Shown here piece after piece: positions 1 through 50,280 of a stretch of DNA of 64,000 nucleotides (positions within the stretch are counted from its first letter, which is position 1; each line of letters starts with the position of its first letter). The stretch comes from Patagioenas fasciata (taxonomy: Eukaryota > Chordata > Aves > Columbiformes > Columbidae), in assembly GCF_037038585.1 (NCBI RefSeq), contig NC_092520.1, positions 149,295,104 through 149,359,103 of the forward strand. Reading direction: 5' to 3'. The translations under genes and the position numbers were made by a program. The notes beneath the pieces are model-generated. The model was not told where the DNA came from. It did not search any database and saw only the letters and a program-made list of their open reading frames with translations.

Positions 1-1377
1 TGGAGCATTCTACAGCACAAGGACATGCTATGTAACAGCATTTGTAATGGCTGGCAGTTTTTCAAGGTTGGGTATATTAAACTAGATTCCTATGTCTATT
101 TGTTTGCTAATATACTGAAAAAGCCTGTTTTCCTTTTTTCTTTTTTTTTTTTTCTTCCATCTCCTGCTGTAGAGCCCATGAGCAACAGAAGCCAGTGGAT
201 GCCTGTCTCTCAACAAAATTACTTCTATTGAGGAACCTAAAACATAGATTGGGACTTTAATGTCAGCACGAGCAAGAACTTCAGGACGATTGTGTGACAA
301 GGGAGAAAGAGGCTGGAAAACTCAGACAGCTAGAAAGTAACCTGAAAACAATTTAGCATGCTCAACAACTGAAAGTACCTATCAGTGGAGACTGAGTAAT
401 GGCAAAAATTTCCTGTCCTATCCCATTTTCAATTTAAGTCCAAGAAAGAACCCATAAGTAGTCTAGCAGCTTTTCAGGATAGATAAAACAAACAAAATGC
501 CTAGCCCCATAGACAGACTTTGAGCAGTCAATACTATGCAATGAACTGAACCCATCCTTGCTGGCCAGAAGTAGGACACTTCTTGCGAGACGGTGACTGG
601 AGGTGCTTCCTACTGCCTCATCAGGAGGTGACTGCAGAGCAGCTACCTTACCAGCATGGAATATATCTCACATGTGAATAGTTCCCTGCTTTTTTGCCTT
701 ATTGTATGACTTTTGTCTACGTTTCTCAAATGGCATTTTTCCCGTGGTGATGGTGTGTTTGAATTTGCTTCTAGTTGTGCTATGAAACACTCTGCAGCCT
801 CCTGTGGTCCACCAGAGCCCCGGACCTGTGGCAAAGGTGCTGCTCCACTCCACTGGCCCTGCTGCTTTCAGTGTTGAATACCTGATACTCAGGGTTCAAG
901 GTCAAGTCAGTTGTCCAGTTGTTCAGTCAAGCTGTACAACCACTTCTCTCTAAAATGACCTTCTTGACCCAAGCTTCAAGAATGTACTAGCTTTCAAGAT
1001 GCCTTTATGGGCTTTCTGGAGTTGTTCCATGCAGAAGTTCTCAAAAAATAAGTGAAAATAGAACTGTCCTAAGCTGTAGCCTGGATAAAAATGGCTGTTA
1101 TGTAAATTCTGAAGCTTGAAACAAGCCTGAAGTAAGTTTGAGTTTTGTAGGATTATGATGAACGAGGTCTAGCCTGGTAGAATAAGAATGTAGTAGCTTT
1201 GCTAATTGGTTTGTCTTCTAATTGAATACACCTTTTTCTAAATTGACTCTCACTCATGATACACCCTTTCAATGGGAGTCATATGTTATCTAGGAATTGT
1301 CCTAGTACCCACTGAAATACCATATAAAAGTTACTAATAAAGCTGAATTTTATGCTCTATATTCTTACTCTTCCTAG
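1..1377. other. Left-edge non-coding sequence upstream of the first recognised exon
   Basis: AT-rich sequence with a T-rich run near 138-158. I recognise no coding exon. If the downstream relic has the full ovochymase layout, a first protease domain should precede the first CUB domain. I see no GDSGGP-like or TAAHC-like exon here, so that part is either left of the window or eroded past recognition. Confidence 0.4.
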
Positions 1378-1516
1378 GACAAAAACTTGGCAGTGCCTTA
1401 AAAAGTCCCAAGGAGATGAGCTCGGAGTTGTCACAATGCACGGATGTCATCCTTACAAATTGGGAAGCGAACATCCAGTCACCAGGCTGCCCCATGAGAT
1501 GTGCAAATGCTGCCAG
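1378..1516 (+). pseudogene. CUB1 exon a of the ovochymase-like relic
   Basis: A strong acceptor (pyrimidine tract ending TTCCTAG) and donor (CCAG|GTGAGC) flank 139 nt that are open in the phase entering with 2 bases and leaving with 2. The peptide contains CTDVILTNWEANIQSPG, the usual CUB start (Cys, hydrophobic strand, then an I-x-SP turn). The conserved tyrosines of the SPxYPxxY motif are replaced by Cys (SPGCPMRC), a first sign of decay. The last two bases join the next exon to complete a Ser codon. Confidence 0.65.
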
Positions 1517-2122
1517 GTGAGCACCCGAGTTATTCTGGCTTTTGAAACTCACATGAAAATCTGTAAACATCTGTGATGTGGTTTTCAATAAATCTATAGA
1601 TGGTACTTCAGTGCATTTCAGAAAATTGGGCAAGTTCCCCAAAGGGAGTTATGAAAGTTTGGGGACACCAGTATGTTCTTTCCAGCAAGCAGTAGACAAT
1701 CTGACATCTCTGGGCAAAGCTCTCATCTTAAAACATGTCAGAGGCCTGAATATGGTGTAACTGAGGGGTTAACAATGGCAATGATAAACTACGTCACTAA
1801 AAATCTTCTGGCACTTTCATCTCTTTCCTTTTCTTCCTCCTTTATCATGCTTAGTTAGGATGAGAGATAACTTTCCATTCACATGGCAATAGCATAGACT
1901 TCTAAACTGTTTGAAGGCTTAACTTCAGAACTAATGAATAATATGACTGAAATAGATTTGGACCAGTATCCCCTCTTTGATTTTTTTTTTTATTTTCCTC
2001 TTTTTAATGGGCATTAGAATTCCTTTTGCCTTTGCTCACGTTTTGATAGCTATCTCTAGGAAATAAGAGCCAATTGTAAAATATGCTGGCATTGTGACTT
2101 TGTTCTTTGCTTTGTGCTGCAG

Positions 2123-2262
2123 CCATCATTGGAGAATTGTAGCCTGATTAAAATCCATTATTCAGCTTGAAGTCCTGGACATCTGGACTGAAAGAAATCT
2201 GTCTCATTTTCATGACCAGTTCATGGAGTATGAAGGATTTGGACTAACCATAGAGCTGATAG
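2123..2262 (+). pseudogene. CUB1 exon b, carrying an in-frame TGA
   Basis: The acceptor is TGTGCTGCAG and the donor is GATAG|GTGAGA. The frame dictated by the preceding exon reads HHWRIVA, stop, LKSIIQLEVLDIW and ends FGLTIELIG, the CUB core pattern (C-x-W-R-I, then alternating hydrophobics, then a glycine-rich end). The cysteine expected before W-R-I is His. The TGA lies about 24 nt into the exon where a Pro is common in CUB domains. Everything after it stays open in the same frame, so the stop is an isolated lesion rather than evidence of a wrong frame. Confidence 0.62.
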
Positions 2263-2686
2263 GTGAGAAAGAGCTCACCTTAATGCTGGGGCGAGAGAAA
2301 CAGAGGAGCTGAACTAAGTTTCGTCTGCAGACAGACAGGGAGTTTTACATGGCACACTTCCACACTCCAGAAGGGATTTCTGATAATGGTTGGAGCTACT
2401 TCAGCCAGCTCAGTATCTTTCCCTTCCTAGAAATACCGTTCCAGCTGCATGTATTGGATGTGAGGTCCTAATAATGGCATGGCTGTGCCTCGGAAAAAAA
2501 AACGTGAGTCTGTCTGGGTCCTTCTTTCCCAGGCTTAAACTTGCAGTGTGACACCTCACTGTGTGTGTCTGCAGCCATGTGCCAAAGACAAGGCAGAAGG
2601 TCAAAATGATGGGGCCAAGGGAAGGGAAGCTTTTCCCTACCACCCTGCTGAGCAAGAAGAGGCATCTACAGTATAAGAAGGATATA

Positions 2687-3152
2687 AAGCTACTGGAGAA
2701 TGTCCAGAGGAGGGCCACGAAGCTGGTGAAGGATTTGGAGGGGAAGATGTATGAGGAGCAGCTAAAGTCACTGGGTTTGTTCAGCCTGGAGGAGACTGAG
2801 GGGAGACCTCAGGGTGGCTACAGCTTCCTCACAAGGGGAGGAGGAGGGGCAGGCGCTGATCTCTTCTCTCTGGCCACCAATGACAGAACCCGAGGGAATG
2901 GCAGGAAGATGTGCCAGGGGAGGTTTATGTTGTACATTAGGAAAAGGTTCTTCACCCAGAGGGTGCTGGAGCACTGGAACAGGCTCCCCAGGGAGGTGTC
3001 ACAGCCCCAAGCCTGACAGTGTTCAAGAAGAGACTGGACAAGCCCTCAGACACATGGTGTGAACTGTGGGGTTGTCCTGTGCAGGGACAGGAGTTGGACT
3101 CAATGATCCCTGTGGATCCCTTCTAACTCAGGACATTTTGTGTCTATGATCC
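2687..3152 (+). mobile_element. CR1 LINE 3' fragment
   Basis: Contains the CR1 reverse transcriptase C-terminal coding remnant ([41 protein letters not shown]) and runs to the CR1 3' end (GTTGGACTCAATGATCC and a GTGTCTATGAT tail). It is 5'-truncated, as usual. It lies in an intron of the ovochymase-like relic, between CUB1 exons b and c, in the same orientation as the gene. Confidence 0.9.
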
Positions 3153-3745
3153 TCCCCACCCTGACTAACAAGCATTGACTTGGTTTGGTAGGATATTGCT
3201 GGGGAAATTAAACCACACAAGTATGTTCTGTGCATGAAGGAGAAAGCATAGACGGGAAACTTAAACTGCTAAAACACCTGTGGCACTGAAGGACCTTGTA
3301 TCCATGTCTTAGTTATGTGAGACTCTCAAGGTGACTTATTCCCTGGGGAATATGGATGTCCCACAGTCTTGTGAGCTTTGCATAGTGTCTTGCACAAAGG
3401 AGCCTGAAGTGGGGGCTTCCTGTCAGAGAAGGAATTTCTTCTGACCAGAGTAGTCCAGGCAGTGGGGACTTGCTGCTGGAGATTTATAGTGGTTATAATG
3501 GGTGTCTTTAACTATATGTCTGTTTGAAGAAGGTCCTCATTCTGCTTACAAGTACAGAAAGCTGTCTTCTGGCCATGTCTGTGGTCTAATGTATGAATTC
3601 AAAGCTGAATGACATCAGGATTTTGTGTTAAAAGGTTTTTAGAAAGGGAAATCCTTTCTGACATTTTGAAAGACTGTGCCTTATAGCCCTCAAGAGAAAA
3701 AGGGGAAATTGGAAGGCTCATCTTCTACCCTGGTCTACTTTCCAG

Positions 3746-3880
3746 GCAACTTCTGTAACGATGCTTCCATCTATCCCATAAAATCTCGATGTTCAGTGGT
3801 GACAGTGACCTTTCTTTCCAGGGCTGAAGTAGGCATGAAAGGCTCTCTCTTGACTTACGCTACTCAAGAAACAGTGTCTG
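3746..3880 (+). pseudogene. CUB1 exon c
   Basis: The acceptor CTACTTTCCAG and donor GTCTG|GTAAGT bound 135 nt that enter and leave in phase 1. Exon b ends in phase 1, so the join reads ELIG-NFCNDASIYPIKSRC. The peptide continues SVVTVTFLSRAEVGMKG, matching the second half of a CUB domain (F-C-G, then S-x-x-V-x-V-x-F, then a G-F-like turn). The Gly after the conserved Cys is Asn and the usual KGF is KGS. This exon has no stop codon. Confidence 0.65.
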
Positions 3881-4979
3881 GTAAGTCTATTATGATTTTG
3901 GGGTGAGGGTAGAGAAGTAGAGCCTAAAGTATGACTGTTATATAAAACAAGCAAGCAAACAAAACAAAACCCAACCCAAACATAAAACTATCTGTTCTGA
4001 AAATAAATGGTTATTAAGAGATCTATTAGTGATGTTGAGTGCTGATGATTAAATGCATAAGTAGTGATCCAGTTACTGTGTTCATTCCCCGCTATAAACC
4101 TTTAAAAAAGTGATGCTAATGTAGCTGTTGCTAAGTTAGTGCCTCTTAATCTCCTCTTAGTCTTCTCCAGGCTAAACAATATGCCCCTTTCTATTCTGCT
4201 GAGCAAAACTAGAATCCTGTCTCCATGGTCAATCTGTTATTATTTCTACCATCTCTTTTCTGCTTTTTCACCTAGTAGGCAATACTGCTGTGGGCTGCTA
4301 CCGTTCCCATTGCTCTTCGCCAAACCTCATCTCCACCACACACCCAGGGAGCTACACAGTTAATTGGGCTTTAAGTTTAAAAAACAAAGGAAACCACTCT
4401 CGCTTTCTTGCTTCCCACGCCAGGGTACAGCTTGTGACACGGATGCACTGTTTTCTCTGTGAATAGCACTGGCCTGGCACCTTTAAGCAGATTGATACTT
4501 TGAAGCCTCAGATCAAAGAAACTTGGAGCTGGAGAGATGCATCCAGTCTGACTCCTCTGTTTTCATGGAAGCAAACCATTTTGCATTTCTAGTGACTTGA
4601 ACCACGTCTAATCTCCTCCCATCCCGCTTTCTCTTGTCTTACTTGTGCTCATCACTGCTGAGTGAAAGAGCACATCTGCTTCTCTATGTTTCAGGCAAGT
4701 ATGTTGGGCTTCAGAGGTAAATCGTAGCAATTAAATTTCTCATATTAAAATTCAGATTCAGACTTTACAGCACCATCAACAGAGATCTGTCTGCTTTTTC
4801 ATGTATGCACACATTTCCAAGTTGCACTTGAAGCCCTAGCTCTGAAAACTAGGAGGTGTTCTTTTCCATTCAACCACAGACTGGCTCTAAACTCCTCTTG
4901 GCTCAGGCTCTCCTCCCCAGAACAGCCCTGTAACCTCTTCTGTGTTTGTGTGCCTCAGGTAAGGCAGCGCTTTCCTTTC

Positions 4980-5013
4980 AGGTCTGGAACCTGGAAATAT
5001 GAAGGCTGCTGAC
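4980..5013 (+). pseudogene. Possible interdomain linker exon (weak)
   Basis: A good acceptor (GCTTTCCTTTCAG) is followed by sequence that continues the exon c phase as GLEPGNMKAADKEK. A short hydrophilic linker is expected here, between CUB1 and CUB2. No convincing donor follows and the frame stops about 60 nt on. It fits by position and phase only. Confidence 0.25.
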
Positions 5014-6154
5014 AAAGAAAAGACTGGTTTTAACTTTGCACAAAACTAGTGAGAGGAAAGGAGTAAAAAGCCTGATTTAAAAAAATAATAATAAAAAAAT
5101 TAAAGTACCCCACCTCCTTTTATGTACATTCTGTATTTATGGCTTGGGAATTAACCTCTGTCATAGTTAAGTGTGAGCATTCGAGCACGAGACTATCACC
5201 AGCAGCATTAGCCATGTCAGTACTAAATGTACTTTCTTCATTCACCACATCCCTATTTTGCCATATTTACTTTTGGTTCCTGCTGTCAGAGCTGCTATGT
5301 ATGCTTGGAGAAGGGAATAGCTACTTGAAGGGGAAAATAAAACAACACTCTACCAACAAACCCAAACCTTAGCAAATTCCAGTAATGTCAAATATGTTGG
5401 ATGTGAGATCCTCGAACCTGCCTCTGCTTTTTGTATAAGGACTGGAACTTAAGCCAGGTTGACCAGCCTGCCTGAAGCACGTTCCCAGCTGTTCAGCCAC
5501 AGGGACCCTCAAGGTGGAAGTTTAAAAGCCTCATGAAGTTTCTACACCATTTGTGTTTCCAGCAGGTTCGGTCTCCTCTCTCTCATCACCCCAGGAAGTG
5601 TGTTGTAATCACTGCTGCCTTTTCACCCTGGTAAACTGGGGGGTGATATTAGATAGGCATTGGCTATGTAGCATTTTATTTACAGAATTCCTGAAAACAA
5701 TGCAAAGTATTCCAGAAAAATATGTAATTAAAGGGTTAATATGCCTACAACCTGCTATTCTACATTTTGATCAGCTTTGTGGCTACTATAAATGCAAGGC
5801 GAAAGGAATATCTATGTAAATATTTTAGGAGCAGTTAATGGATTTTTAAGTTTTAATTTGGCCCATTAGGAAAGGTTGCTCCAAGTGATCCTGTATGTAG
5901 GGTCTCAATGCCCAACCTGTAGGTCATTCTTCAGAGTTCAAGTTGTTTCCCAAGTCTATAGGCCTTTTCCTGGTTGAAAAGTTCTCTGTAAAGAGCATGT
6001 AGAATTTGTGCTTTGAAGCCATGCAAATGTTCACTCCAACCAACAGAACTTAAACCACAAAGCTAAGATCTTTCTTCAATATTAATAGGCCTGCTTAAAC
6101 AAATTGATGAAGTAACAGGTTTTTCTTTGTGATATGCTTGTTTTCTCTTTTAAG

Positions 6155-6222
6155 AGTGCCTAGGCTTTGATCTAATCCCAGTTGGAGCCACTGAAATAAC
6201 TTCTCCCTGGCATTTACCCTGA
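6155..6222 (+). pseudogene. CUB2 exon a remnant with in-frame TGA
   Basis: After the acceptor TTCTCTTTTAAG the phase-1 frame reads CLGFDLIPVGATEITSPWHLP, stop, NAEPHW. This mirrors CUB1 exon a (Cys, about 12 residues, then E-I-T-S-P). The TGA falls in the segment that is normally Y-P-x-x-Y. I see no GT donor near the expected end, so the right border is approximate. The middle exon of CUB2 (expected between about 6.25 and 7.15 kb) was not found. Confidence 0.5.
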
Positions 6223-7156
6223 AATGCTGAACCGCACTGGGACAATTTATTCTACTTCAGGAAATAAGCTGAAGGCCATGCTTAAAGATTTTGTAACTGA
6301 GGGTGCAAGGGTTTGCATTTGCAATCATCAGAGTGTTTGTGGTGGACCACATCTCTCTTCAAGGCCTCTGGGAGGCTGAACTACATGTTCATCTACTGTC
6401 TTCCTTTTCTGCCCCCTTTTATTGAATGAGGGTGACCGTCATGGGATGTGGGAGGCAAAGGAGGAGGACAACACCATCTGATTAGTGCCTGTAAGGCAGG
6501 GCCAAGAGACAGCAAGCTTCCTGAGAGCCATTGAGAGCAGCTCTTGTTGCCCAGGGTTTCTTTGGTGGAAGTGTCCTGGGCTCATCAGCTCTTGGCTTCC
6601 AGCATCATGGCTGTGTCTGGGAGGATACTTGTAATAATCCTTCTCTTAAAACCTTTATTTTCTTAACTCTTTGTATCTTGGTACTTGTCTCACTCTGGGT
6701 CTGAAATAATTTGAGCAGATGCTGCCGTGAGTACTAAAGCTGCCTCGGGCCATATAGACATCAGGGTCTTAGCGAATGTTTCAGGAACGGCTTCGTGCAT
6801 TACTTGTTCTCCCATTGTCTCCCCCCTTTCTCGTCCGTGTACGTAGACATGTAGAGAACTGTTTATTGAAGTAATGCCAACAAAGTATGAGAGATGCACT
6901 CGTATAGAGTATAAGAATAATTTGACCATTGCACTAAGTGTCACCTCTTCAGCCTGGATAGGGAATGATACTGCATAGGCCACTAGAGATGTAGCTCCTG
7001 AGAAACCTCAGAGAAGTTCTGGCATCCACTAATACCTCTGAGTATCAAAAGGCTTGGATTAAAACATCCATCCCTGGAAAAAAAAAGTGTAGGGACTGTG
7101 TCTCAGACTGCTTGGCAATGACTACAACTGCAGTATCTTCTTCTTCCCCCCACCAG

Positions 7157-7321
7157 CAATCTTATGTGGCCAGAAAATATCTCTTAGCGTGTTCTCCAGC
7201 AGCAGCTTCCTGATCCTGCCTTTTAAAACTGATGAATCTGTGGGATACAGAGGCTTCAAAATCCTTCTTGAAGAGTTGTATCAGCAGCCAACACAAAGTG
7301 AACTGGAAGGCAGCAGCCCAT
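7157..7321 (+). pseudogene. CUB2 exon c
   Basis: This is the best preserved CUB exon. The acceptor is CCCCCCACCAG and the donor is CCCAT|GTAAGT; 165 nt are fully open and in phase. The peptide reads ILCGQKISLSVFSSSSFLIL and then FKTDESVGYRGFKILLEEL, an almost textbook CUB second half: L-C-G, S-S-S-x-F-x-I, F-x-T-D-x-S and R-G-F-K. The exon enters and leaves in phase 1, like CUB1 exon c. Confidence 0.7.
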
Positions 7322-7994
7322 GTAAGTAAGGCTTTGGGTCTTCCCCTGCCTGTGCCACGAAGCAATCCTGTTGTTAAAATAGCATTGAAAGTTACAGACG
7401 AGGACATTTGTGACGTTTATTTGCTGAATGTGCTTCCCCTAAAGCTATTGTCTGAGATAATTTCAATATATTCTTCCATGCTCTGATGCACCCAAAACTG
7501 CAGCAAGTTAATTTGGTGCTCACCCCAGGCACTTCACACTAGGTGGTCGTCCTTGTGTCTCTGCAGTTTTCACTGTCACCAAGCCAAAACCAGAAACGTG
7601 CCTGAGGAATGACTGTTTATTTAAACTAATTTTTGGGTTGGCTTGTTGTTACTTAAAACAGATGCTCATTGGGAGGAACAATTGGTCTCAGCATGTAAGT
7701 GACCTCAGATTAATTAATAACCACTGTCTGGAACCTGACACCACATAAACAGGATGCAGAATACCAAACAGTTTAACCCATCTGTGCTAACTTTCGCTTG
7801 AAAGCTTGGCTGCTCTTACTGAAGGGCCATGCCTTTTCCCAGGGGAAGGCAAGGGGAGCCTGTTATGAAAAGGCTAGTTCCCATGGTGTTGTACCTCATC
7901 CCTTAAAATTATCAATCAGTTTCTCTGAACTAGCTCTACCAATGACAAACTTTTAATGGACTTAATTTCTGTTAAATTTTTTTTTCTTCCCTAG

Positions 7995-8027
7995 ACTCAT
8001 CCTCTGTATCACTAATTTCCGAGGAAA
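7995..8027 (+). pseudogene. 33-nt linker micro-exon between CUB2 and the protease domain
   Basis: Flanked by a T-rich tract ending TTCCCTAG and by GAAA|GTAAGT. It is open in the inherited phase (Y-S-S-S-V-S-L-I-S-E-E) and leaves in phase 1, exactly what the next protease exon needs. It has no domain content of its own. The evidence is the phase fit on both sides plus two good splice sites. Confidence 0.5.
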
Positions 8028-8645
8028 GTAAGTACGGTTCGCTTCTGGTTTCATTTTTTTCCTTTCTCATGTTAACACCCCTTGTGATCAGTGAAAGCTG
8101 CTGGTGGTGGGATACAGGTTCCTTACACATTGTTCAATTTGCTATTACTGGAGATGGCTTGGAACACTTTAGTGAACTAATTCTGGAAAATGGAGACTTA
8201 CTGTAATGGAAACACTTCATAAATATCAGTCTTGACTAAAAAAAAGGGTCAGGAAATGCTTCTCACCTGCAGAATGTGACTTTCTGAAAGATCTGTGGAG
8301 ACATGCTCAGCCAGGACATTGCCAGCCTGTACACATCTGGAACAACAAAGTTCAGGTCCTTCCTCAGCTGGTATTAGTTCTGGTCTTTATTTTTTTGGTA
8401 TAGCATGTGTGGAAAACTTCTGTTATTTTGAAGAGAAAATTAAAGTGTTCCCCAGTCTCTACAATACAGATGCTTCAATCCCACCAGTGGGCTATTGTGG
8501 AACCTTTGGTGGACACAGCTGTCCAGAATGAGTCTGGTGCTTGTTTGGTGTATTAGTCCACCCAGCTGTGACAAAATAATTCCAGAGAAATACAGAATTC
8601 CAGTGGTGGATCCACAACCTGTGCTGCTGTCTGCAACACATACAG

Positions 8646-8801
8646 AATCTCCATGTGGGAAGGCCAGGATGGATGAAAGTGGTTGATCAACCCTCATGTC
8701 CTGGTCCTGGCTGGCCAGCCTGCAGTCTGAGAGCCACACTTCTGTTGAGGCTTTCTAATTGATGAAAAATGTGTCCTGACAGCTGTACCCTGCAAACCCA
8801 G
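8646..8801 (+). pseudogene. Protease 'His' exon: frameshift, stops, His57 to Pro
   Basis: Acceptor ACATACAG, donor CCCAG|GTAGGC. The exon begins SPCGKARMDESG and then stops. The same frame continues SWSWLASLQSESH, like the W-P-W-x-x-S-L-Q of S1A proteases. After a 2-base insertion (a CACAC stretch) another frame reads C, stop, GFLIDEKCVLTAVPCKP. The ancestral pattern is C-G-G-x-L-I-x-x-x-x-V-L-T-A-A-H-C, so A-H-C has become V-P-C and the catalytic His is lost. Exon length (156) is 2 nt over the 154 that the flanking phases require, which independently supports the insertion. Confidence 0.68.
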
Positions 8802-9580
8802 GTAGGCAATGTCTTCTCAGCCCAGAATGCTGAGGGCTTGCAGGCCTCCAGCCAGGACAATTTCTAAACCATCTTGTCCGTCCTGGCAAATATAGATCAG
8901 TTTATTTCTTCCTACATGTCTATACACATTCAGAGCTGCCCTCCAGCAGCTTAAACCTCACATTGTAGCTTTCTGTGCTGCTAGCAGTGGTAGCAGTAGA
9001 GATGGAGTGTGGGCTTTCATGTGTATCTGGTAACTAATGTGTGCATGCAGTCCCAGGAGAGCTTGTCTTCTGCTCCCCAAAAAACTGCTGATGCCTGTAT
9101 TATGTCTCTGGCCTCCCATTATGTACTTCCTGGCCTCAAATAGGCTGAGGTACAAGATGCTACGATTGAATCTTCATCTTTTTTGTGTGTAGACACCCAT
9201 GGTTGGCGGCATAGTTCTTGAATGGTTTGTCAAACCTAGTTATACAGACCAGACCTGTAGCTTCAATGTAAGCTACATCTATGTTGGCGTCTGGTTCCTG
9301 AGGAGGCAAGTGCCTGACTGACCTCTGGACTCCCTGTGTTAATTGTAACAGCAGCAAACCTCTGGAGGTGGAAATCATAGTTTTCTCTCAGCACAGCACA
9401 AAAATCATTGGTACTTCGACCGGGATTCCCAAAAGTGTCCCTGTGATGTAAAGTTTTGAGTCTCGAAGCATTAGTTTTGCTTGGCAGCAAATGTTACAAG
9501 TGAACTTTGGATTCTTCCTGTTGTCTCAACTAGTGGTTTTTAGACTGAAAATGTATTTGTTTTCCTTCTTTCTTGCTCAG

Positions 9581-9680
9581 TGCTCGGACAGACAGAATAG
9601 TTCTGGGGAGAAAATACTTGTTTCCAAATATGAAGGATGACAACCCTATGCTTGTGGAAGCCATGCACACTGTAACTTTG
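9581..9680 (+). pseudogene. Protease exon between His and Asp regions
   Basis: The acceptor is TTCTTTCTTGCTCAG and the donor is CTTTG|GTAGGT. The phase inherited from the His exon (one base needed) gives 100 open nt: RTDRIVLGRKYLF near the start and MLVEAMHTVTL at the end. D-x-I-V-L-G-x-x-x-L is the strand following the His loop in S1A proteases. No lesion is visible in this exon. Confidence 0.55.
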
Positions 9681-11374
9681 GTAGGTTTCCTTCCAGAAAT
9701 GTTTTGGCACTCCTGGAGCTGCAGAAACCCATCAAGCCAGATATTGCCTGGAGTCCCATTGTATTCAGCTGTGCTGGGGTCAATGATTATAGTAAGACCT
9801 TGACACAGGGCACAGTGTTCAGTATGCATGTGAGGAGGGGGGTGGAAGGGAATTTGTCTGTTTTACGCACTAAGGGATGCTAAGAGTGAAATGAATAGTG
9901 CAAGCCTTTGGACAGGCTTGCTTCCTCTCATCGTGTGTAGATACAGCAAAAGGATTAGGAAAGATTCTGCTCTCTTCAACAGGCTTTGAACCAGGCTCCT
10001 CTGAACAAACTCACCTGTGCCTTTAAGGTGCAAGTGTAGGCTAGACATGATCTAGAGAATAGTAAAGATCATCTATTCCACCTGTCTTCCCAACCTGTCA
10101 CAGCTGTACTATGACCGTTAAAGTTAATGAGCCAAAAATAAGCATGCACATCCCAAAGGAGCTGTTATTTTTTCTCCATAAAAATCGGTATGCACAGCAC
10201 TAATATGTTCTGCACCTCTGCTGGTAGCAAAGTAATGTGTCTGGGATAGCAGGGGCTGAAATTAGGAGAAAAAGCTTCTAGGTTGCCTGTACCTTTTGTC
10301 TAAACCACAGAATATTCTTGTTAGACAAATAATTTGCTGCAGTATATAATTTAGATTTTCTACAATAAAGTGCAGTGCTTGGATAGAGCTGAGAGAAGTT
10401 ACTCCTTCAGTTTTTGTACAGCATGGGGCAGGACTTGGGAAGGAAAGGGGAAGAACTGAAGACAAATGTTAAGCAATGGGAAAAGGTGATCTAAAGAGAG
10501 CTGATGCACAAGAACAAAGCATGTAAACAGGGCAGCTGTATAAGCGTACGGATATTGCCATGTCCTGTTAATATTATCCACAAAGAAAATGCCACAGTCC
10601 TTCCAAGAACTGCTTAACTATGTGCACTGATGACTGGAGGTTTCTGTACTCAAGCAGTGAGGTAACCTGGGGCAAACTAGCCTGAGGGAAGTGTCTTCCC
10701 CCAACTCCATGGCTCTGTGCCTCTTTGGAGTGTCTCTTCTCTCATCTTCTCACAAACAGCCTTCAAAAAATGTTCAGTTTGACTATGCTGTAGCCTCGCA
10801 GTGGTATTAGGAGAAAGCTAGACTTGATTCATTAAAACAGCGCTCTCGGGCATCCAGCAAGTACAGCGAGGGAACATGTACATCATTAAAGCTCTGTCTC
10901 ATCTGTTTTGCAGTCTTGTTATGGGTTATTTGGAGGAGGGGGGCGGGGGAAAAGGAATGAAGCAGTGAGTTAAGAGGCAAGAAAAGCAGGGTTCTGAACA
11001 GAAGTAAGAGCAAGGAAGCTGTACCTGGTGTTGATGGGAATTTGCTTTCCAACACAGGTAGTCCTGCAGCAAAAACTCTGCTCACCAGGCAGCGGGAGGA
11101 AGGAAGAACTGCTGCAAGGTGCTTAACAGTGGGATGGGCAGAGATGGGAGCTGGCAGTGAGTACAGGTTACTCTGACATAAAAGAGCATCTATGACCTAT
11201 TGAAGGCAGTGACAACTCAAACTGGAAGCATTGCCAGGAGAGACCTTGCCCCCAACCACCCCCAAATGTCACCTGCAGCATGTGAAATGCTTTCCAGATA
11301 GAAGCCAGACTGCCTCTTCTGTCAGAAAGCTGCCACATCTGGAAAAACAAAGCCAAGGCAGATGATAAATGAGA

Positions 11375-11530
11375 GGAAACAAACTCAAGGGAGATGAGAT
11401 CACCCTCATGGTCCTTCAATGCCTGGAGCCGCTGGCACCTGTCACCCTCACCGCCCAGCATGGTGGTCAGAAACGTCCTGGTGCCTGTCTCCTTGGGACA
11501 GCTTGGTGGCTGGGGAGGAAAAACTTCTCC
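11375..11530 (+). pseudogene. Protease 'Asp' exon remnant, frame-disrupted
   Basis: One frame reads GDEITLMVLQCLEPLAPV and then GACL; a second, offset frame reads GGWGGKTSP. Together these resemble the N-D-I-T-L-L-x-L, C-L-P and T-G-W-G-K-T landmarks of S1A proteases. This suggests Glu in place of the catalytic Asp102 and a frameshift before the TGWG segment. Exon borders are not clear, so coordinates are approximate. Confidence 0.4.
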
Positions 11531-12261
11531 CCTCACCTTCAAATTGAAGAGACCTGTACCACCTCCTCATTCAAAACAGCCATGGACCCCCTTGCCAAGA
11601 CACATGGGGTATGTGTGCCTGAACGCAGCTGGAGCAGAGCTTGTCTGTGTCCTGTTTCACCAGCTCTTAGCTGAAAGTCTGGCACAGATAGCAGCAAGGA
11701 AGCACCCTACCAGCTAGAGGTTAATCTGAGAAAGCTGCTGGGGTGATGACTGACTTGGGGATACTGCCAGAAAGTTTTGCGAGTGCTCATCTCTGCCCAG
11801 CAAAAGGTTTTTGTCTCTGGTGTGCTGCCTTTGCTCTCTCTTTGGGGCTTGCCCAACCCTTCTTGGGTCTTTTGGTGATTCCTGCGAGAGACAAGGGAGA
11901 GGTATGAGGACTACAGGGGTTAATATATCGTGCACACTTCCCGCTGGTGACTGCCACCCTATTTCCGCTCCTGGCTGATGGGCTTGGTTCCCCCTGCCAG
12001 CTGCATGCCTCTCAGCTTCAGAAAGCTCTACTCCAAGCTGACTGCAAAAGCCAAAGTGGCTCCATACAGCTGTCTGGAGAGAGACTCCTTCTCCTGAAGC
12101 ATATGGAAGACTGTTTTGTGTAATATTGGATAACATGCATGCAAAGGGAAGTAATCCCCAGGCTGGGGTCTGACCTCAGAAGTGCGTTGAATAACTACCA
12201 GGAGCAGTGACAGAGCTGTGATTCCTACATCTGCAGCCTCCCTGACTGTTGCATTTCGCAG

Positions 12262-12458
12262 AGGAAGAACTGGCTGCCAAACTCCAACAAGCAGAGATCG
12301 CTCTCCTCTCCCACAAGGCCTGTGCAAACTACAGGAGACAAAATAATGAAGAGACCAGCACCTGCAGGAGAGCTGCGAGGGCAGCCTTTGGCACGGCAGG
12401 AATGCTGCGCTGCACACAACCAGGACCCAAAGCCATGCCCTCCCCTGACTTCCAGCAT
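12262..12458 (+). pseudogene. Protease exon upstream of the catalytic Ser
   Basis: The acceptor is CATTTCGCAG and the donor is AGCAT|GTAAGC. The 197 nt read AAKLQQAEIALLSHKAC, the typical S1A segment L-Q-Q-A-x-x-x-L-L-S-x-x-x-C, and end near GTAGMLRC and DFQH, matching M-L-C-A-G and D-S-C-Q just before GDSGGP. The frame is open throughout, but cysteine spacing is abnormal and the segment is longer than usual. Confidence 0.6.
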
Positions 12459-12537
12459 GTAAGCGCTGTTGATACTGCTGGCAGGTGATAACTCCTTGCT
12501 TTCTCCTTCTCTGCCCTTCCTCTTTTCCTTCTCTCAG

Positions 12538-12711
12538 GGTGACTCTGGGTGGCCACTGACCTGCGGGATTGGCAGGTGTTATAAGCAGGTTGGCATTGCA
12601 AACTGGGGCAGCAGTAGGTGCCATCCTGAGTCACCAAGAGTCTGCACCAGGGTTTCTGCCCACAGACACCAGATTTCATCAGTACCAAACCAAAAGGTTT
12701 GCTTTACTTGA
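12538..12711 (+). pseudogene. Protease 'Ser' exon ending the relic
   Basis: The acceptor CTTCTCTCAG is followed directly by GDSGWPLTC, then QVGIANWGSSRC, then SPRVCTRVSAH, the canonical S1A C-terminus (GDSGGP, VGIVSWG, PGVYTRVS). The nucleophile Ser195 is kept but the next Gly of the GDSGGP motif is Trp, and PGVY is PRVC. The frame ends at a TGA at 12709-12711. Spliced in phase 0 to the preceding exon, this is the clearest protease signature in the relic. Confidence 0.68.
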
Positions 12712-15700
12712 AGAGGAGCTTTTCAGGTTTTTGTGTATTTTTGATCATTTAAAAGATTGTAGTGTGTACTGGGTAAACATGATTCAGGTCACCTTCCTGT
12801 AGACCCTTCCTCTTTGGAAGTTCAAACTTGAAAACTCACTTTCAGAAACCCTCTTTTTACTGCAGCAAAGCTTGTGGTGCTGTAGCATTACTATGTATTA
12901 AATTCCTGAAAGGTGCCTAGGAAATACTATCCCTTGGTATTTGGGTGCATGTTTAGTGTCAAGTCCTTTACACAGCTAGTACTCATCTGTCAAAATAAAA
13001 TTGGTACTTCCTGTTCCTCTCAGATAACCTGATTTACCAAGGCAAGTAGATGCTCCAGCAGCAGGGATAGCTAAGATGGACAGCAGCAGGACTTCACTGA
13101 AAAGAAAGTGATCTGGAATTTTGTGTGATGGCTCATCCGTTCTAAATGTATGTTTAGGTTTCAGAGAGATTTATCTATACCAAGCTCTTAGCCTTGTCTC
13201 TCATATTAGAAAAGCCACACTGATGTGATTCCATTTGCCAGAAGCTTGCTTTTTTGTTTGAAAGGGAAGGGTTTATATGTATTTTCTTGCCGGAGGGAAA
13301 GGTCAGGTCTGACTTATCTAAAGCTTCTTATGAGCTGGTAGCTAAAAACTAGACTTGGGAGCAAAGCGTATTTGTGAAGAAGGATTTTAGTGCTCAGCCC
13401 CGTCAGCATGTATCAGTGAATTACAAGCCAGGAAACTTCTGCCTCCATCTACCTCCTCTGGTTTCAGCACTATTGTGCACGACACATGTATCTGTCCTTT
13501 AAACTGAAGACAGCAGTCTCTTTTCCATCTCTGTGCTGTACATAGCAGTCCACTTAAACATGGAAATACAAACACAAGAGTGTTTGCAATGAGACAACTA
13601 CATGGCTGTTATCTGGCCAAGCGACCCTGACAACCACAATGGTTGAAGAACTACAGCCTGCCCTTACACCAGGTCATTTATGTACGATAGTTTAATAAAT
13701 CAAAAGTTAAACACATGATCTGTTGACTAACCAAATACTAGTCTCTCTGTTGCTTAAAAGAAACCCTTCTCGCTCCTATTTCCACCCCATGCTGCTTTGG
13801 GAAAGAAAACCGCATATTCTAGCACAATTCAGAAAACATCAGTCAATCTTTACAAAAATAATAGTTCCCCTGAACTAGCAGAGCTGTAAATTGCAGTATT
13901 TTGTCAGGCTGCTGTTGCTGATGACTGACTTGTCGTGTTGTAACTGACTTAAAAAAAGCTGCTCTGCCATCATAACAGCAAAAATCTTGTGGGTTTTGGC
14001 TCGAAGATGTGATTTCCGCAGTGTGTCTTCAGCTGTGCAAATAGAGCAGCTTAGGGTTTGTAATTCAGTGCCGTATCACAGATCAGGGAGGCTCCCTGTT
14101 GTGAAAATATCTGAGGCATTAGGTGAATAACATGCTCACTGAAACCTTTAAAGACATGGGGGTGGGATGGGTCACCAGGCCTGTTCTTGGTGGCAGGGAA
14201 CTAGGGAGAAGGAAACCTGTTCCCAGGACTCCTGAGCTGCCAGTAACCACTTCTTGCATCCAAAAAAGGGGACATGTTGCTTGGTGAAGTGACAGCCTCA
14301 TCGCAGGGAAGGTCCTGCCTGTGCCTTGGCAAACTGGCAGAGCTGCAAGGTGAAACCAGGATCTGGGGCACCTTTGTGGTGGCACCAGAAACCCCTGGCC
14401 TGCCATGCAGGATTTTACACCGTATATTTCAGTAGGAGAAGAGTGTTAGGAAAGCTTTTGGTAAAGCTGAAGAGAAGCAGTTAATGTTCACCTAATAGTT
14501 TTTTTTTCATTGTTGACCTAGAAATGGGCGGCCAGATACTAAGAGGAGTAACTACTGACTGGGAAGTGTCACTCTATGAAATAGCTTGGACTTCCATTAC
14601 AGAGCTAGAATTTAAATGAATGTGGAGAGGGTATCTGCTGTTTATGTTGCCCCTCAAGATGTGCTGCACGTTCTCCTTTTGGACCATCTATTTGATGCAG
14701 AGACAGTTGGTAAGAGAAGACAGAGCCCTGGTCCAGTGTGAGGTGTAGCACATTGTACAAAGGAATTTTCCCTCTCCACCTTTTTACAAGCAAGTCTGGC
14801 TCTTATAATGTAAATATATTTCCTGGGGTGCAGGGAACAGCAGAACCAAGAATGATTTTCACCTTTTGAAGGCAGAGGCAGTGAGTTACTGAAGAAGGAG
14901 ACAAGAATGGCGCAGGAAAGTAGAGTTGCACAATTACAACCTGACAAGTAATTCCCGAAAACATGGACCCTAATGAGTTCTCTTTAATTCTAGACTTGTT
15001 TGAAGCAAAAGCATATCATAAATTAATCTACACGGCACTGCTTCTTGGGGTGAACAGCTATGCTCTCCAGGACAGCAGTGTAGATTACATTTGCAGTGAT
15101 ACTGCCTACACAGGTATTCAAAATCAGGAGGAAGTTCTCCTGACCACCAGCCCAAGCTGCAGTTCTGATTGACTTGGCTTCCTCGTTCCATGGGCTTTGG
15201 GGTTTGTGTGTGAAGGTTTGGGGGGCGAGGGAGGGCTCCTACCTGGCACTGCCTGGATGTGCTTGGATGCTGTGTGCAAGTTTTATGTGGCACAAGAAAT
15301 GGGACTGTGAAATCTCAAATAGGCTTCTCATTAAAATTTTTCAAGTAGCTGGGAACACAGCACGTCCTGATGCTTCTAGAAATGTCCTTCCATTAGCAGT
15401 TACTGCACAAAGCTGATTGTCCTATCCGAGAGGCATGTTCTGCTTAATTGCGATGGAGATGTTATCCTGCTTCACTCTTCTCGCTTTGTGGATTTTTTTC
15501 TCTTTGCTTAAAAGTAGTTTAGCAAGAAACCACAAGCTGCTGGTTGTACAAGCAATTATTTTTTTTTTAATTTTAGCAAGTGCTGATTTAAGATGAGTGG
15601 TGAGATGATTTGTTTGTGCATGTTTTTAAAAACAAACAGGCAAAAAACACAAACAAATGATCTATTCCCAGAATAGCTCGTGCTTAATGTTGGGGCTCAA

Positions 15701-37900: not shown

Positions 37901-38690
37901 TGGGAAGAGGGGTAAGTTAACTCTGAATATGACATGCACCCTGACTCAACAGAAGAGATCAGGTGTGAATTAACTCCGGGTAGTTCTGTGTGGAAAAGTG
38001 AAGTGAATGACAGACAATCACTCTGGGGGTTCAATTATGAATTTACTAAAAGCACACGGTGGAATACAAATTACAGTGATCAGTGACTTGGCAAAAGTAT
38101 GTTATAATAACACAAAAATTATCAATGGCAAAAGCCCTTCTAAAAAACAGTGGATTGACAACAATTAGTAACTATAATGCACAACTTGACAAGATTTTAG
38201 CAGGAGAACTTACAATGATATTACTTTTATACGTTCAGGAGAAAGTAAAAGAGAGAGAGACAAGGAAAGCTAAGATGTCAGAGAGAGTAAGATATCACCG
38301 CTTCACAGGTCCCGCGATGGCCTCTGGAGGGGGGGACGCATTGAGGATTTACATGCCACCACCTCATAGCATTTGTGAGGTCGTTTTATAACCCAGTTCA
38401 TTTATATGTGAGATAGGAGAGGGCGGTTCATCTCCTCCCTCTGTTCACTCTTCATGCTAATTAGGAAGAGTCTTCTGGAAATGGGTCTGGGGTCTTCAGA
38501 CTAGGGGAATGTTCACAGTACTGACCAGAAGTGAGTTGTTTTGCCCTTCAGGGCTGCTGGTTTGTGGTTTCTTCTGGTAGCTGTTTGTCCATCTTTATCA
38601 TCCCAATTAGGCCATGAGGCCTTTCACAGCAACACTGTTAATTGACTTTATCTTCTGCCTCCATGGCCATCTATCTTTTTGGCTCAAAGT
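37900..38690 (-). mobile_element. Possible solo LTR, antisense (tentative)
   Basis: The block differs in texture from its surroundings: an AT-rich stretch with a TTCAATTATGAATTTACTAA phrase, a purine run of GAGA units near 38247-38290, and then a GC-richer, pyrimidine-rich segment. In antisense, an AGTAAATTCATAAT phrase could be a polyadenylation region of an LTR. I could not identify matched TG...CA ends or a target-site duplication, so this is a guess at an avian endogenous-retrovirus LTR. Confidence 0.25.
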
Positions 38691-39224
38691 ATCAATCACA
38701 AAATGTTGGGAAAGATGAGATGCCTGCCTCCACAACCATTTATTTTTTCCTCCCAAAGTAACAAAAAACATGCATTAAGGCATAACATAGGCCTTTGTTC
38801 TGCTAAGGATGGGGGAAGCGCTTCAAGGTTGTCACAGGGCAGATGGATCCTTTCCTGTGGCATGAGGTGTACACCTGTATTCTCTGGGATATATTACCCT
38901 GTACCCAAATAGCCAAAGATGCTGGGGTTAACAGCATCTCAGAAAACCTTTAGGCACAGCAGCAGAGTGATGCCCCTACTCACCCAAAATGTCCCCATGC
39001 AAGAAAATACTGCCCTGTCAACCGAGAGGTTGTGACAGAAAGCAGCTCTGGGCATTAGCTTCACGTTGGTGCTTCCCTACCTGCCAGGGCCTACAAGCAC
39101 GGTAAAACAGAGTCAGTGCTGGGAAACATGCACAAGGAGGTAAATCCGTGGGGCATGGTGCCCTGGGACTTGTGTGCTGTTGACTGTCGTATGTCTGGAC
39201 AGGTATGAGACGTGACCCGAGCAT

Positions 39225-40110
39225 TTCCAGCGCCGGAGCTGACTATGCTCTGGAGAGACCCTTGCACCGAACACGATGAAAACCCACGCCCAGCCGCCTC
39301 CCTTCGCCGGCCTTGTCCTGCCCCTCCAGGGAGGACGCCTGGGGACCGAGGGTGACACTGACCCCTCTGACCGGGCTGGCCCCGCAGCCCCCGGAGGCGG
39401 GTCTCCGCTCCCCCACCGCCCTCCCGCATCGCGGCGAGAGGAACCCTCCCTCCCAGAGGCGGCTCTGCCCGCATCAAGGGGCAGCTCCGCGCCGTACCCA
39501 CCACACCAGGACCCCCTCCCCAGCCCCGGGGGAGGCGGCGGGGCCGCTCCCGGCGCAGACAAGGGTTAACACCAGCGAGCGGAGCCGAACGGAGCGCGCC
39601 GCGCCGCCCCTCGCACAGCGACCGCACAGGGACCCCGCAGCGCCGCCGCCCGGCCCCGCCGCCGCCGTCCCCCGCCTCTCGCCTCCCCTCAGCCCCGCCG
39701 CCCTGGCTTCGGCCTGCCGCCGCTCACATGGCCCCGGCTCCGGTAAGTGCGTGCACCGGGAGAAGCGCGGCTCCTCCGCGCCCGCCGCGACAAAAACGGG
39801 GCGGTGCCGGGGCGGAGGGGGCCGGGCGAGCGGAGCCCCGCCAAGTAACGGGCCGGCAGCGCGGGGGGTTTCCCGGGGCGCTGGGAAGCGACGAGACGTT
39901 GTCGAGGCAGGCGCGGGGAAGCGGAGCGGGCGGGGACCCCGCGGGTCCGCGGCGCTGGGTCGGGGCAGGTGTCGGGGTCCCGCGCCCGGGCACGGCCCAT
40001 GAGGAGCGGGCGGTCCCTGCGGGGGACGATCGGCTGCCGGAGGGCGGCCCCGGGGCCGCGGCGCGGGGCTGTGGCATCGTGGAGGGCCAGGCCGGAGCCA
40101 TCTGATTAGG
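39225..40110. promoter_or_regulatory. CpG island without an assigned gene
   Basis: About 0.9 kb of very GC-rich, CpG-dense sequence with GGGGCGG and CCCCGCC boxes, in sharp contrast to both flanks. CpG islands of this size mark vertebrate promoters. Long ORFs here in several frames are a by-product of the composition and repeat no domain. ACRBP starts 6 kb away, so the island probably belongs to a different transcript. A plus-strand ATG-donor exon lies inside it. Confidence 0.7.
39728..39742 (+). CDS. Possible 5-codon first coding exon in the CpG island
   Basis: ATG followed by GCC CCG GCT CCG and then a consensus donor GTAAGTGCG. This is the right arrangement for a first coding exon (M-A-P-A-P) of a gene transcribed rightwards from the island. 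No downstream exon in phase 0 was identified. The zinc-finger terminal exon 10 kb downstream is one possible destination, but the minus-strand ACRBP gene lies between them. Low confidence. Confidence 0.25.
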
Positions 40111-49000: not shown

Positions 49001-49414
49001 GCAGTGCCATCTAGCTAAGCAGCTTACCTCACCTGCCAGGATCCATTTCCGAGGTGTGTTTTCCATATGACTATAAATAATAAAAAAACAGGAGCCTCTA
49101 TATGTTTCAGTCTAAATGTTCATTTCCATGCTTGATTAATAAAAGAGTTTGTCATTCCACTCACTTGCCTATCTGTTCTGTAGACAAAATCTAGATACAG
49201 ATGCTGCAGAATATGTAGGGCTTTCTTTTTAAGGAAAAGGGCTATGACTGGAAAGAAGAAAGAAAATAGTCTGCTTGGCAGGGTGGATGTTCCTGTGGTG
49301 TTAGCTGCTTGCTTCTTTGATTAAGCATAGGAATGCTGGAAGAAGAGCAGTGATTCATGGGCAATGGGAGGAGACGTAGCTACGGTGGGGGTTGCTGAGG
49401 AGAGCAGTGATGAT
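46066..49414. other. ACRBP upstream flank and intergenic DNA
   Basis: Pyrimidine-rich, moderately GC-rich sequence just upstream of the ACRBP start (46066 to about 47050), probably containing its promoter; I see no clear TATA box. ORFs on the plus strand here (up to 226 codons at 46118-46798) lack known motifs and lie antisense to the likely promoter. The remainder to 49.4 kb is AT-rich without recognised exons. Confidence 0.4.
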
Positions 49415-49943
49415 GTGGTGAGACCCCATCTAGAATATTGCATCCAATTCTGGGCCCCTCAGTTCAAGAAGGACAGGGAACTGCTGGAGAGGGTCCAGCA
49501 CAGGGCAACAAAGATGATGAAGGGAGTAGAGCACCTCCCTTGTGAGGAAAGGCTGAGGGAGCTGGGGCTCTTTAGTTTGGAGAAGAGGAGACTGAGGGGT
49601 GACCTTATTAATGTTTATAAATATATAAAGGGTGAGTGCCATGAGGATGGAGCCAGGCTCTTCTCGGTGACAAACAATGGTAGGACAAGGGGTAATGGGA
49701 TCAACCTGGAACACAAGAGGTTCCACTTAAATTTGAGAAAAAACTACTTCTCAGTGAGGGTGACAGAGCACTGGAACAGGCTGCCCAGGGGGGTTGTGGA
49801 GTCTCCTACTCTGGAGACATTCAAAACCTGCCTGGACATGTTCCTGGTGCGACCTCACCTAGGCGTTCCTGCTCCAGCAGGGGGATTGGACAACATGATC
49901 TTTTGAGGTCCCTTCCAATCCCAAACATACTGTGATACTGTGA
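49415..49943 (+). mobile_element. CR1 LINE 3' fragment with long residual ORF
   Basis: Starts at GTGAGACCCCATCTAGAATA and ends near ACTGTGATACTGTGATG. The plus-strand frame from 49364 to 49906 is still open and encodes CR1 reverse transcriptase C-terminal phrases ([54 protein letters not shown]). It is the same subfamily as the antisense copy at 33.6-34.4 kb and lies just upstream of the zinc-finger exon. Confidence 0.93.
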
Positions 49944-50280
49944 TGTTCCCCGACCTCGCTAGGTGTGGGAACTTTGAGGAGAAGCAAGTGACAGCTTTTG
50001 TCCTTTAGGACTGTAACTGTATGACAGAAGACCCTATTTGCAATCTGTGCCACCATGGCTGCCCATCCTTGGGTCACGCTCCGTTCCTGCGCTCCTCGGT
50101 CTCTGTGCCCTCATTCTGCCCAGAGAAGATACCAAAGGGCTGTCTCCTGCGCTGTTAGCTAATGGTGGCGGACGTGCAGCAGGTCTCTGTGGTTGCCCTG
50201 TTTGGGTTTCTCCCTCAGAGAAGCAGAGGGGTGTTTATTCATTGCTAGTTCCTCTGTTCACTCCAGCAGGTGACAGGACC

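What the first reader, a model, noticed from the sequence alone, without database searches (positions are those of the whole stretch)
1378..12711. A hidden, decaying ovochymase-like CUB/protease gene
No long ORF marks this region, yet nine exon remnants in correct order spell CUB-CUB-serine protease, with conserved exon phases and mostly intact splice sites. Lesions are few per exon, so inactivation looks recent relative to bird divergence, or recent relaxation of constraint. Seen directly: the frames, motifs and splice signals. Inferred: identity as an OVCH-type gene and its loss of function.
Basis: partly seen in the sequence, partly recalled or inferred. Interest (0 to 1): 0.8.

Follow-up and report, generated by a model that had tools for sequence, protein, structure and literature searches.

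The report
Broken OVCH1 egg-protease gene in bird
This is the last third of a dead copy of ovochymase-1, a secreted protease gene linked to eggs that still reads intact in some waterfowl and turtles but has fallen apart in this bird: one more example of gene loss in birds.

Summary
The remnants at 1378-12711 are the 3' third of ovochymase-1 (OVCH1): all four hits of the first protein search are gannet, turtle and owl ovochymase-1. Aligning duck, goose and turtle OVCH1 to the window plus flanks gives one collinear 42-kb gene, window coordinate -29408 to 12711, with three protease and five CUB domains. Three references agree on 12 in-frame stops and 14 frameshifts. Catalytic residues and 8 of 40 conserved cysteines are lost. 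No second copy was found, and an OVCH2-like paralogue in the same genome shows 0 stops with the same duck query. The stops look private: other neoavian models have sense residues at 11 of 12. Seven other Neoaves also change faster at invariant sites than four palaeognaths, and six of the seven models are flagged low quality, while Oxyura and Anser models are full length. Protease 2 lacks Asp194 in all 12 non-neoavian bird entries examined, so decay may have been stepwise. A unitary pseudogene: ordinary in kind, perhaps part of a Neoaves-wide loss.

The parts
775..900 (+). OVCH1 exon, end of CUB3, with in-frame TGA at 783; AG/GT borders
1378..1516 (+). OVCH1 exon, start of CUB4; AG/GT borders; two Tyr of the SPGYP..Y motif read Cys
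2123..2262 (+). OVCH1 exon, middle of CUB4; AG/GT borders; in-frame TGA at 2145; the Cys of C-H-W reads His
3746..3880 (+). OVCH1 exon, end of CUB4; open, AG/GT borders (the aligner stops at 3858-3860, the frame runs on to the GT at 3881)
4982..5016 (+). possible short linker exon between CUB4 and CUB5 (8 of 12 residues as in Oxyura); acceptor AG, no GT donor; tentative
6155..6371 (+). OVCH1 exon, first half of CUB5; frameshift at about 6208; donor position reads GA
7157..7321 (+). OVCH1 exon, end of CUB5; open, AG/GT borders
7995..8027 (+). short linker exon after CUB5, AG/GT borders; aligned with Oxyura, skipped in the Anser alignment
8604..8801 (+). OVCH1 exon, start of protease 3; AG/GT borders; TGA at 8684 and 8746, frameshift at about 8739; catalytic His57 (AAHC) reads VPC
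9581..9739 (+). OVCH1 exon, protease 3 with Asp102 (NDL reads NVL) and a frameshift at about 9664-9670; 3' edge uncertain
11058..11158 (+). weak remnant of the next protease 3 exon (16 of 34 residues as in Oxyura)
12262..12395 (+). protease 3 exon remnant (23 of 45 residues as in Oxyura)
12538..12711 (+). last OVCH1 exon with the Ser195 motif (GDSGWPL, the W shared with waterfowl) to the natural stop TGA

Best explanation
The locus is the 3' third of a unitary pseudogene of OVCH1. The ancestral gene, still readable in Oxyura, Anser and turtles, encodes a secreted polyprotease with three S1 protease and five CUB domains; the known relative in Xenopus acts at the egg surface. In this neoavian bird purifying selection on the only copy stopped, and the gene has since collected stops, frameshifts, splice-site changes, an unrecognisable catalytic-His exon and replacements at invariant residues along its whole length. 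It most likely makes no working protein. Shown: identity, domain order, lesions, no second copy found, a paralogue without stops. Inferred: secretion, past egg function, absence of a functional product, timing.
For: All four hits of the first search are ovochymase-1: Morus bassanus (flagged LOW QUALITY), Chelydra, Chrysemys, Otus. Spliced alignments to Oxyura, Anser and Dermochelys OVCH1 cover 1516, 1507 and 1504 residues in 35, 34 and 31 segments. 12 stops are placed identically by all three and 14 frameshifts within 6 bases. The window part scores 1363 against 58-66 in seven controls. Protease 3 reads VPC for AHC and NVL for NDL; protease 2's His motif is unrecognisable and its Asp102 is Asn; protease 1's GDSGGP is SDSRAP. 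80 of 371 residues invariant in five non-birds, Oxyura and Anser are changed; after the local-identity filter also applied to the other birds 64 of 332, against 8/276, 13/281, 16/278 and 13/260 in four palaeognaths. 8 of 40 cysteines invariant in five non-birds are lost, against 0 of 41 in Oxyura and in Anser. No other place in the 1.45-Gb assembly matches at OVCH1-level identity. With the same query (Oxyura residues 55-865) an OVCH2-like locus on C5 gives 0 stops and 2 edge frameshifts, the OVCH1 locus 8 stops and 12 frameshifts. A TMTC-domain exon lies about 81 kb upstream of exon 1 on the same strand, as TMTC1 does beside human OVCH1 (recalled).
Against: Several exons are fully open with good borders (1378-1516, 3746-3880, 7157-7321), so a short or exon-skipping product cannot be excluded from DNA. 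No transcript data and no DNA of a close relative were available, so dN/dS was not measured. Frameshift counts depend on the reference: 18-19 each, 14 in common. With a distant lamprey query the control locus shows 4 stops and 5 frameshifts (OVCH1 locus 8 and 18), so distant queries inflate counts. The LOW QUALITY flag also occurs on non-bird OVCH1 entries (Callospermophilus, Trichechus, Liasis). In one search only 30 of 309 first-look candidates were scored.
Confidence: 0.93

Rival explanations
1. A living but shortened OVCH1: this bird still makes a reduced product (for example one CUB module) from the open exons, the rest being skipped.
For: Some exons are open with intact borders. Four palaeognath database models also lack most of the part from CUB3 on, apart from a 29-residue stretch in Struthio, so shorter OVCH1 forms may exist in birds.
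Against: Invariant residues are replaced alike in the upstream part (55 of 259) and the window part (25 of 112), so neither part looks protected; single domains were not tested apart. Stops and frameshifts are spread along the gene.
Confidence: 0.04
2. Assembly or sequencing errors make an intact gene look broken.
For: Single-base indels are a typical error of some long-read assemblies (general knowledge).
Against: The same genome gives an OVCH2-like gene with 0 stops under the close query. Lost catalytic residues and 8 lost cysteines are not indel errors. Models of six other neoavian species are flagged LOW QUALITY.
Confidence: 0.01
3. A duplicated, non-orthologous pseudogene (OVCH2 or another CUB-protease), the true OVCH1 lying elsewhere.
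For: CUB exons are common: 152 CUB matches in this genome.
Against: Introns are kept, so it is not processed. The tree places it with seven other neoavian OVCH1 at support 100, though no OVCH2 was in that tree. Other places in the genome are at most 57% identical to duck OVCH1, against 59-79% for the 8 pieces of this locus listed. The OVCH2-like gene is separate, on C5. A TMTC-domain neighbour is present.
Confidence: 0.02

Closest known systems
Ovochymase-1 (OVCH1) of waterfowl and turtles (e.g. Oxyura P0014, Anser P0013, Dermochelys P0005)
   Same: Same order of 3 trypsin and 5 CUB domains (for Oxyura and Dermochelys), collinear exons, 67% identity to Oxyura and Anser and 55% to Dermochelys over about 1500 residues.
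   Different: Those three read as full-length open proteins with three Ser195-type and three His57-type motifs; here stops, frameshifts and lost catalytic residues.
Neoavian ovochymase-1 models: Morus, Phoenicopterus, Cariama, Theristicus, Ciconia, Rhynochetos (flagged LOW QUALITY) and Otus (not flagged)
   Same: Fragmentary, with raised change at invariant sites (10-19%) and altered catalytic motifs.
   Different: At 11 of the 12 stops found here at least one of them has a sense residue, at two of these (783, 8746) only one; the twelfth (8684) is not covered. These stops look private to this lineage.
OVCH2-type gene of the same genome (C5:9.47-9.49 Mb, minus strand; name inferred)
   Same: Protease-CUB-CUB-protease, same family.
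   Different: No stops with the duck query and complete triad motifs in both proteases; 44% identical to the aligned part of duck OVCH1.
Other gene losses in birds (MOXD2 PMC4830563, DCC PMC5327424, WDR93/CFAP46 PMC10445033; seen as listing rows with abstract starts only)
   Same: Same kind of event: a conserved vertebrate gene decayed in bird lineages.
   Different: A different, egg-associated gene.

Membership tests
OVCH1 orthologue | protease-CUB-CUB-protease-CUB-CUB-CUB-protease order | tested here: met
   Collinear spliced alignment to residues 1-1559 of Oxyura OVCH1; Pfam finds 3 Trypsin and 5 CUB stretches in duck and turtle OVCH1
OVCH1 orthologue | groups with bird OVCH1 in a tree | tested here: met
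   With seven other Neoaves at support 100, inside birds, turtles as outgroup; no OVCH2 in that tree; columns trimmed to local identity of 50% or more with Oxyura
OVCH1 orthologue | conserved chromosomal neighbours | tested here: inconclusive
   One of four TMTC-domain matches of the genome lies upstream on the same strand; which TMTC it is was not settled. No ERGIC-type match nearby among 3; recalled ERGIC2 and FAR2 probes found nothing in 264 kb. Human gene order is recalled
OVCH1 orthologue | working Ser-His-Asp triads | tested here: not met
   Protease 3 lost His57 and Asp102; protease 2 lost its His motif and Asp102; protease 1 keeps His, Asp and Ser but reads SDSRAP. It is a descendant of OVCH1, not a working member
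Unitary pseudogene | disabling mutations at the orthologous locus | tested here: met
   12 stops and 14 frameshifts agreed by three references
Unitary pseudogene | no functional copy elsewhere | tested here: met
   Own-genome searches with CUB4 and with full duck OVCH1; only 30 of 309 candidates were scored, and unassembled sequence is not covered
Unitary pseudogene | relaxed constraint | tested here: met
   80 of 371 invariant residues changed, alike in the upstream and window parts; longest tip in the tree, 0.246. dN/dS not tested
Unitary pseudogene | no functional transcript or protein | not testable with these tools
   No RNA or protein data for this bird

The most novel reading that the evidence does not exclude
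OVCH1 decayed in steps along the bird tree: protease 2 was crippled before crown birds (Asp194 to Gly), protease 3 was altered in Neognathae (Gly197 to Trp), and the whole polyprotease was released from selection at or near the base of Neoaves. Most living birds would then have dropped a conserved egg-associated protease of tetrapods, while waterfowl keep it.
Probability: 0.4. Interest if true: 0.6.

Novelty: new member of a known kind. Interest (0 to 1): 0.42.

Why it matters
Ovochymase sits in the perivitelline space of frog eggs (passages of PMC13079451). [quoted passage not shown] OVCH1 was higher in ovaries of high-laying ducks, at FDR 0.099 (passages of PMC9243076). If Neoaves lost OVCH1, egg-coat proteolysis may differ between fowl and most other birds, poultry would be poor models for it, and natural knock-outs would exist to test what the protein does and whether OVCH2 took over. 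Against great surprise: a study of 77 people lists OVCH1 and OVCH2 among genes with homozygous loss-of-function variants (one passage of PMC3868571, study size from its abstract start), so the gene can be lost elsewhere too.

Tried and rejected
Rfam scan of the window: 0 matches at gathering score among 4227 families. Considered and rejected: retrocopy (introns present), OVCH2 pseudogene (a separate OVCH2-like gene exists), assembly error, chance. Synteny probes: recalled human-like ERGIC2 and FAR2 proteins gave no tblastn hit in 264 kb; the ERGIC-type family search found 3 matches, none near the locus; the FAR-type family search did not complete. A shared first lesion of all Neoaves could not be tested, since only proteins, not DNA, of other birds were reachable. 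Among invariant sites with data from at least four of eight Neoaves, 2 were changed in all, 93 in one lineage and 43 in several but not all, which does not show where selection was lost. Papers: eight searches; none of the rows shown is about OVCH1 loss in birds, but searches show only 30 of 65, 15 of 1710, 12 of 753 and 12 of 2401 papers, and the library is partial. Read beyond listings: passages of PMC6839265, PMC3495648, PMC9243076, PMC13079451, PMC9114714 (mouse Ovch2 knock-out males are infertile) and PMC3868571. The 1999 Xenopus polyprotease paper is not held; it was seen only in reference lists.
Full report
What it is. The window is 64 kb of contig C1 (216 Mb) of a 1.45-Gb assembly, C1:149295104-149359103. 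The first protein search, with one CUB exon (about 2115-2270) in its own frame, returned four proteins, all named ovochymase-1: Morus bassanus (76% identical, flagged LOW QUALITY), two turtles, and the owl Otus sunia.

Size and anatomy. I joined 100 kb of flank on each side. tblastn with these four proteins laid out one collinear + strand gene. A spliced aligner that I wrote, which allows introns, stops and frameshifts, placed the first exon, with a signal-like leader, at window coordinate -29408, and the end at 12696-12699; the natural stop TGA ends at 12711. The gene spans 42 kb. Aligned segments number 35 (Oxyura query), 34 (Anser) and 31 (Dermochelys), a few of them probably spurious; with Anser, 25 of 33 donors are GT and 25 of 33 acceptors AG. 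Pfam finds three Trypsin and five CUB stretches in the duck and turtle proteins. The window holds the end of CUB3, CUB4, CUB5 and protease 3.

Is it more than chance? The last 536 residues of goose OVCH1 score 1363 on window 1-13000 and 58-66 on seven controls.

Lesions. Stops agreed by all three references: -19896, -16895, -14824, -13766, -9742, -9733, -8665, -1601, 783, 2145, 8684, 8746; one more (-4725) by two of the three. Each reference alone gives 13-15 stops and 18-19 frameshifts. Frameshifts placed within 6 bases by all three: 14, of which those at about 6208, 8739 and 9664-9670 lie in the window. Catalytic sites: protease 1 keeps His, Asp and Ser but reads SDSRAP for GDSGGP; protease 2 has no recognisable His motif and Asn for Asp102; protease 3 has Pro for His57 and Val for Asp102. 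8 of 40 cysteines invariant in five non-bird OVCH1 proteins are replaced, against 0 of 41 in Oxyura and in Anser.

Copy number and control. A CUB4 query finds this locus and two weak places with E of 7.0 and 8.5. Full duck OVCH1 finds 8 pieces of this locus (59-79% identical) plus other places at 57% or less; 30 of 309 candidates were scored. One of the others, on C5 minus strand, has the order protease-CUB-CUB-protease and complete triad motifs in both proteases; I take it as OVCH2 (the name is inferred). With the same query (Oxyura residues 55-865) it shows 0 stops and 2 frameshifts at exon edges, while OVCH1, which is closer to the query (524 of 771 against 349 of 799 identical), shows 8 stops and 12 frameshifts. 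With a distant lamprey query the control locus gives 4 stops (two inside an intron, two at exon edges) and 5 frameshifts, and OVCH1 8 and 18, so only the close query is a fair test.

Relaxed constraint and timing. Of residues identical in five non-birds, Oxyura and Anser, 80 of 371 are changed here, 64 of 332 after the local-identity filter used for the other birds. Filtered values: Rhea 8/276, Struthio 13/281, Eudromia 16/278, Tinamus 13/260; Ciconia 24/235, Theristicus 19/187, Morus 28/257, Phoenicopterus 34/267, Cariama 36/283, Otus 31/186, Rhynochetos 29/150. Anas and Aythya (6/350, 0/292) are not independent of how the sites were chosen. In the tree the eight Neoaves form one clade (support 100) and this bird has the longest tip, 0.246 against 0.080-0.181 for the other seven; relations inside Neoaves are weakly supported (62 or less), and the columns were trimmed to those locally similar to Oxyura. 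Twelve stops imply 0.064-0.083 neutral substitutions per site for transition weights 1-6; at an assumed 2e-3 per site per Myr (recalled) that is 32-41 Myr, Poisson range 17-72. Invariant-site change gives about 0.09. Other neoavian models have a sense residue at 11 of these 12 stops, at two of them (783, 8746) in one species only; 8684 is not covered. Those models are fragmentary, misaligned in places, and may be pipeline-corrected (they contain no X), so this is good but not perfect evidence that the stops are private.

Pattern across birds. Neoavian OVCH1 proteins seen: 7 species, 6 flagged LOW QUALITY, the seventh (Otus, 740 aa) fragmentary. Non-neoavian birds seen: Anser, Oxyura, Anas, Aix, Aythya, Cairina, Rhea, Struthio, Eudromia and Tinamus, 10 species, none flagged LOW QUALITY, Tinamus marked partial; Oxyura and Anser are full length, several of the others are shorter models. 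Three non-bird entries are flagged LOW QUALITY too. The lists are capped (best 120 of 1635), clustered at 90% and not chosen to sample birds, so these are not frequencies. Protease 2 reads GGSGGP, not GDSGGP, in 12 of 12 non-neoavian bird entries, whereas the 8 turtle entries examined, Elgaria, Pogona, lion, caecilian and frog read GDSGGP; Ahaetulla and Anolis gave no motif there. Asp194 is needed for zymogen activation in S1 proteases (general knowledge), so this domain was probably dead before crown birds. Protease 3 reads DSGWP in the four Anseriformes entries that show it, in Morus and here, and DSGGP in turtles, lion, caecilian and frog; it is therefore not a lesion of this bird. The Anas model also has Arg for His57 in protease 3. 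The four palaeognath models end about where CUB3 begins, apart from a 29-residue stretch in Struthio; whether the rest is gone or unannotated is unknown.

How it worked and what happened. By family knowledge OVCH1 is a secreted proenzyme chain of proteases and CUB domains. [quoted passage not shown] Duck ovary expresses OVCH1 (passages of PMC9243076). A hen gene named ovochymase-2 in 2012 and OVCH1 in 2019 (GeneID 769290) is a vitelline-membrane protease raised in liver at sexual maturity (passages of PMC3495648, PMC6839265); which paralogue it is remains unsettled, and no galliform OVCH1 was in the rows I saw. In this bird the chain cannot be made in full. I judge it a neutral relic; redundancy with OVCH2 is a guess.

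Verdict. The finding is correct, the gene is larger than seen, and the kind of thing is known. The possible bird-wide stepwise decay is the part worth following.

Noticed in passing
window 50017-51699 (+): A 561-aa open frame with 12 C2H2 zinc-finger matches, the longest ORF of the window; apparently a zinc-finger gene or last exon.
   Followed up: partly
window about 38000-40000: GC-rich stretch (57% GC) that may be a CpG-island promoter of an unidentified gene.
   Followed up: no
window 2552-3013; 49331-49903; L018:3899-4429; L016:7202-7771: Reading frames that look like pieces of CR1-type reverse transcriptase or CR1 repeat (recalled); three of the four lie inside the OVCH1 gene span.
   Followed up: no
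OVCH1 protease 2 of birds (P0013, P0014, P0015, P0016, P0019, P0022, P0023, P0040, P0051, P0052, P0059, P0084): GGSGGP in place of GDSGGP in 12 of 12 non-neoavian bird entries; both tinamous also have Arg for His57 in protease 2, and Anas has Arg for His57 in protease 3.
   Followed up: partly
G000:C5 about 9475000-9492000 (minus), L034-L036: OVCH2-like gene with two proteases carrying complete triad motifs and two CUB domains, no stops with the duck query.
   Followed up: yes
G000:C11:38442111-38484819: Array of near-identical CUB matches, many spaced 1790 bases apart, perhaps a tandemly repeated scavenger-receptor-type gene.
   Followed up: no
   Followed up: no
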